Notes under the pieces: generated by a model
Told to the model about the DNA's origin: nothing
Database searches by the model: none
What the model saw: the letters and a program-made list of their open reading frames with translations, nothing else
Translations under genes and position numbers: made by a program
Part shown: positions 20,350 to 21,623 of the stretch, piece after piece
How the letters are laid out: the number at the start of each line of letters is the position of its first letter
Numbering within the stretch: the first letter of the stretch is position 1
NCBI GenBank assembly: GCA_002698425.1
Contig: NZXU01000093.1
Span: forward strand, 1 to 46,170
DNA: 46,170 bases
Origin: Ahrensia sp.
GTDB taxonomy: Bacteria > Pseudomonadota > Alphaproteobacteria > Rhizobiales > Rhizobiaceae
Reading direction: 5' to 3'

Positions 20350-20452
20350 GGCGTATGACCTTAATTATTGTCCCTTCGCTGCGGGCTTTGCGGCGCAATC
20401 GCGGCATTTCCATGATCTTGCGCATTGGCGCGCGCAAAATCGTCCATAACGG

Positions 20453-20481
20453 TTGACGAAAATCGCGGTTGTCACTATAGG
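20453..20481 (+). promoter_or_regulatory. Housekeeping-type promoter for rpmB
   Basis: TTGACG (20453-20458) and TATAGG (20476-20481) stand exactly 17 bases apart, a near-consensus sigma-70 type pair, about 115 bases before the rpmB start. The adjacent sequence is A-rich after the -35 box. It is the best promoter I can see in the window and fits the strong expression expected for a ribosomal protein gene. Confidence 0.75.
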
Positions 20482-20595
20482 ACCGTGACTTTTCCGCAGA
20501 TGACGTATGTCTCCGGCGACGCCGCAAAGTCCGGCGCGACAGGAAACGGCGTTGGTGCTGTGGTTCGTAGCAACCGAATTCGAAGGTGGAAACCC

Positions 20596-20889
20596 ATGTC
20601 TCGCGCATGCGAATTGACCGGCAAGGCAGTCCAGTCCGGCAACAATGTGAGCCACGCCAACAACAAGACCCGGCGCCGGTTCCTCCCCAATCTTTGCCAC
20701 GTCACGCTGATGTCCGAAGCGCTCGGCCAGAGCTACCGCTTCAAGGTTTCGGCTTCGGCGCTGCGCACGGTCGAGCATCGCGGCGGCCTCGACGCCTTCC
20801 TCGCCAAGGCGAAGGAAGCCGAGCTTTCGCAGCGCGCCCGCCTGCTGAAGCGCCAGATCGCCAAGAAATCCGCCGGCCAGGCCGCCTGA
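20596..20889 (+). CDS. rpmB: 50S ribosomal protein L28
   Basis: This 97-residue large-subunit protein starts [20 protein letters not shown], the classic bL28 opening, and continues [24 protein letters not shown] and [14 protein letters not shown]. The alphaproteobacterial form is longer than the E. coli protein (78 residues). GAAGG lies shortly before ATG 20596. A strong promoter precedes it and an intrinsic terminator follows 28 bases after the stop. Confidence 0.97.
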
Positions 20890-20917
20890 TTCCAGGCGCC
20901 TGACAGCGTAAAATCCG

Positions 20918-20940
20918 CAGGCCGGTTCGCCGGCCTGTTT
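20918..20940 (+). terminator. Intrinsic terminator after rpmB
   Basis: CAGGCCGG (20918-20925), loop TTCG, CCGGCCTG (20930-20937), then TTT and a T-rich tail make an eight-base perfect stem with a stable tetraloop. It is a clear rho-independent terminator, although the T-run is short. It ends only 18 bases before the riboswitch-like element of yhhQ. Confidence 0.8.
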
Positions 20941-20955
20941 CATTTCGCACTCCAA

Positions 20956-20986
20956 CTGGTGGCATCACCCAGGATAAAAAAATGCG
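20956..20986 (+). promoter_or_regulatory. Candidate preQ1-I riboswitch overlapping the yhhQ start
   Basis: The sequence runs CTGG (20956-20959), loop TGGCATCAC, CCAG (20969-20972), GAT, A-tract, ATGC. It matches the preQ1-I plan: a P1 stem CTGG/CCAG, a loop ending in CAC just before the 3' P1 strand (the last C being the ligand-pairing base in known examples), an A-rich tail, and a pseudoknot P2 formed by GCAT (20962-20965) with ATGC (20982-20985). P2 would bury the yhhQ start codon, and the Shine-Dalgarno AGGA (20971-20974) partly lies in P1. Ligand binding would thus turn translation off. The gene product transports queuosine precursors, the right target. P1 is one pair shorter than in studied examples. 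Confidence 0.72.
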
Positions 20987-21623
20987 TAAGGCACAAACTT
21001 ATCTTCCGTTCATTCTCGCGATGTGCGCGGTCGTCGCCGCATCGAACTATCTCGTCCAGTTTCCGGTCCAGGCGACGCTTGGCGGCGTCAATCTCGCCGA
21101 TCTCCTGACCTGGGGCGCGTTCACCTATCCCGTCGCTTTCCTCGTCACCGACCTGACCAACCGGCGCTTCGGCCCGGCTGCGGCGCGCGTCGTCGTGATC
21201 GCCGGTTTCGTGCTGGCCGTCGCCCTGTCGATCTGGCTGGCGACGCCGCGCATCGCCATCGCGTCGGGCTCGGCCTTCCTGGTCGCGCAGCTTCTCGATG
21301 TCGCCGTGTTCCAGCGCTTGCGCCAGTCGGCCTGGTGGAAGGCGCCGCTGATCTCGTCGCTGATCGGCTCTGTGATCGACACGGTGCTGTTCTTCGGCGT
21401 CGCGTTTTCCGCCGGCTTCGCCTTCCTCGATACCGGTTTCGGCCTCGAGGACGGTTCGCTCGCCTTCCCGGTTCCGTTTCTGGGCATCGGCGGCGAGGTG
21501 CCGCTGTGGCTGTCGCTCGGCGCCGGCGATTTCTGCGTGAAGATCCTCGTCGCGCTGGTGCTGCTCGCGCCTTACAAGGTGATGCGCGGCCTCATCATGG
21601 ACCGGTCGGCCGTTCCCGCCTGA
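20982..21623 (+). CDS. yhhQ: Queuosine precursor transporter (YhhQ family)
   Basis: The 213-residue integral membrane protein belongs to the VUT/YhhQ family that imports preQ0/preQ1-type precursors of the tRNA base queuosine. About six helices are visible. Family marks include ADLLTWGAFTYPVAFLVTDLTNRRFG, the ASGSAFLVAQLLDVAVF block, and ISSLIGSVIDTVLFF. The start codon lies in the proposed preQ1-I riboswitch, and an intrinsic terminator stands between rpmB and this gene. Little room is left for a separate promoter, so some read-through from rpmB may supply its transcript. Confidence 0.92.
   Translation: MRKAQTYLPFILAMCAVVAASNYLVQFPVQATLGGVNLADLLTWGAFTYPVAFLVTDLTNRRFGPAAARVVVIAGFVLAVALSIWLATPRIAIASGSAFLVAQLLDVAVFQRLRQSAWWKAPLISSLIGSVIDTVLFFGVAFSAGFAFLDTGFGLEDGSLAFPVPFLGIGGEVPLWLSLGAGDFCVKILVALVLLAPYKVMRGLIMDRSAVPA

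What the first reader, a model, noticed from the sequence alone, without database searches (positions are those of the whole stretch)
20956..20986. Compact preQ1-I riboswitch whose pseudoknot buries the yhhQ start codon
Before the queuosine-precursor transporter gene the RNA can form P1 (CTGG/CCAG), a loop ending CAC, an A-tract, and a four-pair pseudoknot GCAT/ATGC that uses the ATG itself. Laid against the well-known Thermoanaerobacter tengcongensis aptamer, the loop reads U-N-G-C-A-N-Y-A-C with one base missing, and the tail spacing to the pseudoknot agrees base for base. Known preQ1-I switches of this design hide the ribosome site; here the start codon would be hidden. Target and mechanism agree. 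The short P1 and use of the start codon make it a minimal example.
Basis: partly seen in the sequence, partly recalled or inferred. Interest (0 to 1): 0.78.

Follow-up and report, generated by a model that had tools for sequence, protein, structure and literature searches.

The report
Riboswitch pseudoknot that pairs a start codon
A 30-base RNA switch, shared by many relatives of Agrobacterium and Brucella, appears to shut off a queuosine-precursor transporter gene by folding that gene's own start codon into the pocket that senses the precursor.

Summary
At 20956-20985, CTGG-TG-GCAT-CAC-CCAG-GATAAAAAA-ATGC sits on the yhhQ start codon. Of 81 yhhQ leaders gathered by protein similarity, 46 carry it, all in frame and all with CAU in the loop; 199 of 247 genomes of one family match a pattern that leaves P1 free. 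Covariation reaches into the coding sequence. In 151 nonredundant instances, loops UGGCAU have C at +4 (76/76, 12 codons), UGCCAU have G (8/8; five out-of-frame loci too) and UUCCAU have A/C/U, never G (0/67). The nearest known RNA is the type III preQ1-I riboswitch of E. coli yhhQ: its loop UUCCCUCAC differs by one base from the sister loop UUCCAUCAC, and its C10-G29 pair on the Shine-Dalgarno corresponds to A10-U29 on AUG here. RF00522 gives no hit, but it also misses the E. coli type III leader, so that negative says nothing. The window's loop (U-G-G) and its AUG depart from the type III consensus, so I call it a start-codon-pairing variant of class I, not a type III member. Ligand binding is untested; preQ1 is the best guess.

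The parts
20956..20959 (+). P1 5' strand CTGG
   Evidence: pairs with 20969-20972; one compensated change (CCGG/CCGG) in L345
20960..20961 (+). L1: U6 G7 (E. coli type III numbering); U7 in the sister subfamily
   Evidence: role of U6 from PMC10622847
20962..20965 (+). P2 5' strand GCAT (anti-start-codon); 20962 = position 8, covaries with 20985
20966..20968 (+). L2 CAC; 20968 is the place of the preQ1-specificity cytosine of type III
   Evidence: comparison with the E. coli leader L100 and PMC10622847; inferred
20969..20972 (+). P1 3' strand CCAG
   Evidence: CCAG in the matches listed (a capped list) except two one-mismatch second hits, although the pattern left it free
20971..20974 (+). Shine-Dalgarno-like AGGA, first half inside P1
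   Evidence: AGG in 150 of 151 nonredundant in-frame instances
20973..20981 (+). A-rich L3 GATAAAAAA
   Evidence: identical in 120 of 151 nonredundant instances
20982..20985 (+). P2 3' strand ATGC = start codon plus first base of codon 2
20982..21623 (+). yhhQ, queuosine precursor transporter, 213 aa
   Evidence: TIGR00697 E 6e-27, over cut-off; NF008406 115.6 bits, below its cut-off of 252
20917..20938 (+). context: terminator-like hairpin after the L28 gene (ORF 20425-20889), 17 nt before P1
   Evidence: shuffles give 1.2 such sites in the stretch, so weak by itself

Best explanation
The leader is a class I preQ1-like translational riboswitch. With ligand, loop 20960-20968 and tail 20973-20981 fold with P1 into an H-type pseudoknot in which GCAU (20962-20965) pairs with AUGC (20982-20985). 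The start codon, and half of the Shine-Dalgarno AGGA in P1, are then unavailable, so the 30S subunit cannot place initiator tRNA and the transporter is not made. Without ligand P2 opens and yhhQ is translated: feedback on uptake of queuosine precursors. Shown here: conservation, position on the start codon, a P2 pair that covaries into the coding sequence, the link to yhhQ. Inferred: the ligand (preQ1), the direction of the switch, the pocket geometry.
For: 46 of 81 yhhQ leaders gathered by protein similarity carry it, 46/46 with CAU in the loop though that was not required. 199 of 247 family genomes match a P1-free pattern; the reversed-pattern control hits in 3 genomes. A covariance model over 249 genomes of the order gives 9 hits of 48-53 bits, all beside yhhQ; of the 21 weaker hits fetched as loci (under 24 bits) none lies by yhhQ. 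Position 8 versus +4: GG 76/76 C, GC 8/8 G, UC 0/67 G; in the 46 leaders alone GG 14/14 C, GC 1/1 G, UC 0/31 G. G is the commonest +4 base of long mechanical ORFs in the first 80 loci, 99 of 296. Five further GC loci keep C-G where AUG is out of frame with yhhQ. On the yhhQ tree +4 changes 24 times within 66 UC rows; within the G7 rows base 8 and +4 change 3 times each. Among 23 E. coli-type leaders the base at 31 is never G (0/23, position 8 being C by the pattern used), as in alpha UC. Published E. coli type III: UU-pyrimidine loop, AC before P1', poly-A tail, Shine-Dalgarno in P2, sits before yhhQ, binds preQ1 (PMC10622847, sections read). Tgt matches in 12 of 12 genomes tried, 11 over cut-off.
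Against: No binding or expression data. RF00522 does not hit. The window's loop has G7 G8 instead of U7 C8, so the Eco triples U7-A27-preQ1 and C8-A28-U11 cannot form as published. A13 is C or U in 12 of 151 nonredundant instances. In five loci the motif AUG is not the yhhQ start. The three inner P2 pairs never vary in the alpha set, and CAU and AUG were required by the patterns. Independent flips on well-supported branches are few: 2 for GG/GC, 3 for G7/U7, too few for a sign test. QueF is over cut-off in only 6 of 12 genomes (weak matches in 4 more), so internal preQ1 synthesis may not be universal. At least 10 family genomes have yhhQ without a recognisable motif.
Confidence: 0.8

Rival explanations
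1. Same pseudoknot, other ligand: it senses preQ0, queuine or another 7-deazaguanine rather than preQ1.
For: YhhQ salvages preQ0 and preQ1 (PMC10622847, section read); in Bartonella henselae the salvage proteins take queuine too (abstract of PMC11570991 in the listing). QueF over cut-off in only 6 of 12 genomes. The G7 G8 loop differs from the pockets described in the papers read.
Against: U6, the cytosine before P1' and the A-tract that read preQ1 in the Eco structure (PMC10622847) are at the same places; Eco prefers preQ1 over preQ0 strongly.
Confidence: 0.1
2. A ligand-free RNA structure at the ribosome site (thermometer-like or constitutive dampener) or a binding site for a regulatory protein.
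For: Pairing at P2 position 8/+4 is conserved for itself; no ligand shown here.
Against: Conserved unpaired bases (L2, A-tract) and near identity with a proven ligand-binding RNA at the same gene are not needed for a mere hairpin.
Confidence: 0.06
3. DNA operator with inverted repeats read by a transcription factor.
For: CTGG/CCAG and GCAT/ATGC are also inverted repeats in DNA.
Against: The two repeats interleave with different centres; the site touches an ATG in all instances collected; a coding base covaries with one loop base.
Confidence: 0.03
4. Chance resemblance plus ordinary conservation of a ribosome-binding site.
For: SD and AUG are conserved anyway; MFE z-scores are not significant.
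Against: 30 bases nearly fixed beside variable flanks; position 8/+4 covariation.
Confidence: 0.01

Closest known systems
preQ1-I type III riboswitch (E. coli yhhQ, PDB 8fza as cited in PMC11625349)
   Same: Same gene; P1, 9-nt loop with U6, C9, U11, A13, C14, A-rich L3, three P2 pairs in the same register; sister loop UUCCAUCAC differs from UUCCCUCAC by one base
   Different: P2 takes the start codon AUG instead of the Shine-Dalgarno AAGG; the window subfamily has G7 G8 and a fourth P2 pair with the first base of codon 2; P1 is CTGG; L3 is nearly fixed at 9 nt
preQ1-I type II riboswitch (T. tengcongensis, B. subtilis)
   Same: AC before P1', A-rich L3, H-type pseudoknot (PMC11625349); 9-nt L3 in T. 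tengcongensis (its sequence recalled, from no call)
   Different: Longer loop; P2 buries two SD bases or steers a terminator, not AUG
SAM-II riboswitch before metA of Sinorhizobium meliloti (PMC9373788, passages read)
   Same: Pseudoknot at a ribosome-binding site in a related bacterium
   Different: SAM ligand; P2 acts on the SD region, AUG1 lies downstream and is not used in its natural context
SD-pairing preQ1-I-like leaders of other yhhQ genes (L288, L289, L294, L295, L297, L298, L300, L301, L319)
   Same: yhhQ leader, H-type pseudoknot, AC before P1', A-tract
   Different: P1 mostly CAAG/CTTG, P2 CCG or TCCG with CGG(A), upstream of the start codon. Unnamed Pseudomonadota: G028 and G337 (L288, L297) belong to the class of G001, the class of the other seven is not told

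Membership tests
preQ1 class I (RF00522 and subtypes) | H-type pseudoknot of P1 and P2 | tested here: met
   P2 pair 8-31 flips G-C/C-G; P1 position 3 flips U-A to C-G once. The three inner P2 pairs do not vary
preQ1 class I (RF00522 and subtypes) | AC or UC directly before the 3' strand of P1, A-rich L3 | tested here: met
   Window CAC and GATAAAAAA; AC or UC in 143 of 151 nonredundant instances, CC in 8
preQ1 class I (RF00522 and subtypes) | RF00522 covariance-model score | tested here: inconclusive
   No hit up to E 10, but the E. coli type III leader gives none either
preQ1 class I (RF00522 and subtypes) | binds preQ1 | not testable with these tools
   needs probing or calorimetry
preQ1-I type III | UU after the P1 5' strand, pyrimidine-rich loop | tested here: not met
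   Window loop UGGCAUCAC; the UU is met by the sister UUCCAUCAC subfamily
preQ1-I type III | AAGG Shine-Dalgarno in P2 | tested here: not met
   P2 holds AUG (46 of 46 motif leaders)
preQ1-I type III | lies before yhhQ | tested here: met
   185 of 190 collected instances (same genomes partly counted twice) in frame with yhhQ, the other 5 just upstream of it; regulation itself not tested
preQ1-I type II (T. tengcongensis) | longer loop, SD bases in P2 | tested here: not met
   9-nt loop; P2 pairs AUG

The most novel reading that the evidence does not exclude
A fourth design of the class I preQ1 riboswitch, spread through one alphaproteobacterial family, in which the start codon is a structural part of the aptamer and the pocket dictates the first base of codon 2. 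It exists in two pocket forms: U7-C8 with three P2 pairs, where a fourth pair is avoided, and G7 with an obligate fourth pair. In a side branch that lost the SD in P1', AUGGA may serve as the SD for an AUG 7 or 13 bases on, a bridge between SD-burying and AUG-burying forms.
Probability: 0.72. Interest if true: 0.74.

Novelty: new variant of a known kind. Interest (0 to 1): 0.66.

Why it matters
The papers read here have preQ1-I switches burying the Shine-Dalgarno sequence or steering a terminator, and place type III almost only in gammaproteobacteria. This variant would put the initiation codon itself into the ligand-sensing fold, show how an SD-burying switch and an AUG-burying one can differ by a single compensated base pair, and show an RNA structure fixing a coding base across 12 different codons. 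RF00522 finds neither this branch nor the E. coli type III leader, so such switches may be widely unannotated. It is directly testable with a 30-nt RNA.

Tried and rejected
MFE folding is uninformative for a pseudoknot. RF00522 as a test was dropped after the control failed. A class-wide P1-free pattern found 11 of 385 genomes, only G001 without mismatch; the 10 one-mismatch hits match the 9 genomes with reversed-pattern control hits, so they look like chance. The idea that the fourth pair is a codon effect was rejected (12 codons; out-of-frame loci). The shuffles of the count of structure pairs were not relied on: most columns never vary there, and its pair-counting measures do not exceed the shuffles. 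The sign tests on independent pairs cannot reach significance with 2-3 pairs. Of the 48 family genomes without a strict match, 35 have yhhQ. Of 30 leaders read by eye, 18 show a looser motif, L345 a P1-swapped form, L344 looks decayed (both checked) and 10 have no recognisable motif. The 5 genomes with a yhhQ match but no locus were not examined. Sampling: of the places listed, 30 came as loci and I fetched 80 more: 51 GG, 10 GC, 18 UC and one second hit, so the sizes of the loop classes are not frequencies.

Literature: listings show no title or abstract start reporting a preQ1 switch that pairs the start codon. Subscription journals are mostly missing from the library, and the paper that defined type III (reference 9 of PMC10622847) was not read.

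Full report
What is there. Window 20956-20985 reads CTGG TG GCAT CAC CCAG GATAAAAAA ATGC. The ATG opens a 213-residue ORF that passes the queuosine precursor transporter model TIGR00697 (94.7 bits, cut-off 50.95); the narrower NF008406 stays below its cut-off. Upstream lies the L28 gene and a terminator-like hairpin ending 17 nt before P1. Rfam at gathering level gives one hit in the whole window, a tRNA, and RF00522 gives nothing at the site even at E 10.

Is it more than chance? Eighty yhhQ homologues were fetched by protein similarity to the window's. Their leaders and the window's carry CTGG-loop-CCAG-A-tract-ATG in 46 of 81 cases. All 46 start yhhQ in frame, and all 46 have CAU in the loop, which that regex did not ask for. 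A pattern that leaves P1, positions 7 and 8 and the +4 base free, but asks for CAT, the A-tract and ATG, matched 6 of 6 chosen genomes once each, 11 of 385 in the class (only G001 without mismatch; 9 genomes with control hits) and 199 of 247 in the family of G001, with control hits in 3 genomes. A covariance model over 249 genomes of the order gave 9 hits of 48-53 bits and nothing else above 24 bits at E up to 0.1. The 9 have yhhQ next to them; the 21 weaker loci fetched do not. So the motif is real, usually one per genome, and tied to yhhQ. As far as sampled it is confined to this family and a few neighbours such as the Bauldia record L073.

The decisive covariation. Of 190 instances collected (some genomes twice), 185 start yhhQ in frame; 151 are nonredundant by flank, motif and first codons. 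Loop UGGCAU goes with C at +4 in 76 of 76, over 12 second codons; UGCCAU with G in 8 of 8, over 5 codons; UUCCAU with A 37, C 18, T 12 and G 0 of 67. Positions 8 and +4 were free in all patterns. In the 46 leaders alone: GG 14/14 C, GC 1/1 G, UC A 13, T 10, C 8, G 0. Long mechanical ORFs in the first 80 loci have G at +4 in 99 of 296. Thus, when position 7 is G, position 8 pairs with the first base of codon 2; when it is U, that pair is not seen. Five loci outside those counts (L136, L331, L343, L349, L350) have UGCCAU...AUGG with the AUG out of frame: the first yhhQ-frame ATG lies 13 bases on (7 in L331, with another at 13), P1' runs CCAGC so the SD is gone, and AUGGA(G) could act as SD (inference). 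They keep the C-G pair outside the yhhQ frame. P1 pairing was required; its sequence is CTGG/CCAG in 150 of 151, and L345 has CCGG/CCGG, a compensated change, in frame with a yhhQ that has an N-terminal extension. Phylogeny: the loop classes need 10 changes on the yhhQ tree of 150 rows. In the G7 rows base 8 and +4 change 3 times each; in the 66 UC rows +4 changes 24 times. On well-supported branches only 2 (GG/GC) and 3 (G7/U7) independent contrasts remain, all concordant, too few for a sign test.

Closest known. PMC10622847 (sections 2, 4, 8, 9 and 13 read) describes the E. coli type III preQ1-I switch on yhhQ: U6, U7, C8, C9, C10, U11, A13, an L2 specificity cytosine, A27 of the SD touching preQ1, and pairs U11-A28, C10-G29, C9-G30. 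The E. coli leader found here (L100) has the linker GGUUAAUC named in the paper. Leaders of 82 loci, the 35 motif-less ones and those of E. coli and Salmonella, added on purpose, were scanned. The loop UUCCCUNA(A)C occurs in 26 of these 119 regions; 23 (21 unnamed, plus E. coli and Salmonella) also have the paired flanks and AAA-AGG. I call them E. coli-type; the class of the unnamed ones is not told. Set beside the alpha motif, pair 10-29 is C-G there and A-U here; these letters were part of the two search patterns, so the 23 of 23 and 155 of 155 restate the patterns. The contrast itself rests on the sequence-free scan, which found the UUCCCU/AGG form, and (46 of 46 CAU). P1 pairs 2 and 3 differ in compensated ways between the groups; in 4 of the 23 the outermost P1 pair does not form. 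The alignment of the two groups is my own, by position from P1.

Rfam control. Gathering-level searches of E. coli, Salmonella, three more E. coli-type leaders, nine SD-pairing leaders of other Pseudomonadota, four other motif loci (L021, L038, L064, L287), two loci without the motif (L024, L003) and two phage loci gave no hit, and the E. coli leader gave none at E 10. A negative RF00522 score therefore cannot count against the finding.

Mechanism. By analogy with the Eco structure, preQ1 sits on P1, reads C20968, U20960 and the last A of the tract (20981), and clamps P2. Here P2 is the start codon plus C20985, and P1' holds half of AGGA. Translation initiation should fail when precursor is plentiful. 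In the UUC form C8 can make the published C8-A28-U11 triple, which would explain why a competing G31 is not seen in 67 alpha and 23 E. coli-type leaders. In the window's form that triple is lost and a fourth Watson-Crick pair takes over, so the pocket ceiling must differ. These are inferences. The pathway is present: Tgt matches in 12 of 12 genomes tried, 11 over cut-off. QueF matches in 10 of 12, only 6 over cut-off, so several may depend on salvage.

Membership. As a class I preQ1-like pseudoknot the sequence-level features tested are met, the Rfam score is uninformative, and binding is not testable here. As type III, two defining features are not met by the window (UU loop, AAGG in P2). I therefore call it a new variant of class I rather than a type III member. 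It works like one in what could be tested.

Print status. PMC10622847 says type III is found almost exclusively in gammaproteobacteria. Sections 4 and 11 and passages of PMC11625349, passages of PMC8632094, PMC1273637, PMC3766115 and PMC11570991 and eight search listings mention no start-codon-pairing preQ1 switch. The founding type III paper was not available, so some of these sequences may sit in its alignment.

Noticed in passing
L004, L013, L024, L025, L027, L032, L033, L034, L054, L058, L060, L067, L069 (yhhQ leaders of Devosia, Maritalea and unnamed-genus MAGs; also L003, Pelagibacterium): A different conserved hairpin CCGGUCUNNUGCCGG with a variable outer stem at a nearly fixed offset: summed stem length 75 in 14 loci against 47.7 (sd 4.7) in shuffles, 0 of 500 as high. 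Against it: RNAalifold on the MAFFT alignment of 13 draws only the inner hairpin, with no compensated pair. Rfam matches for L054 are below threshold. Possibly another yhhQ leader RNA.
   Followed up: partly
L288, L289, L294, L295, L297, L298, L300, L301, L319: yhhQ leaders of other Pseudomonadota carry a preQ1-I-like pseudoknot, mostly CAAG-UCUCCG..AC-CUUG with an A-tract and CGGA, pairing the Shine-Dalgarno; not found by Rfam at gathering level.
   Followed up: partly
L136, L331, L343, L349, L350: Motif AUG out of frame with yhhQ, SD missing from P1', AUGGA(G) possibly the SD of an AUG 7 or 13 bases downstream.
   Followed up: partly
L339, L340, L342 (genomes of 1.5-1.6 Mb): Small genomes of the same family have yhhQ without the motif; L344 (1.5 Mb) has a decayed copy.
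   Followed up: no
window 20425-20889: The L28 gene (rpmB) precedes yhhQ; L28-like C-terminal coding also seems to precede yhhQ in Roseibium-type leaders without the motif (read by eye).
   Followed up: no
L098, L099: A Pantoea and a Providencia phage carry yhhQ followed by a 7-carboxy-7-deazaguanine synthase (QueE) gene; their leaders show no such motif by eye.
   Followed up: no
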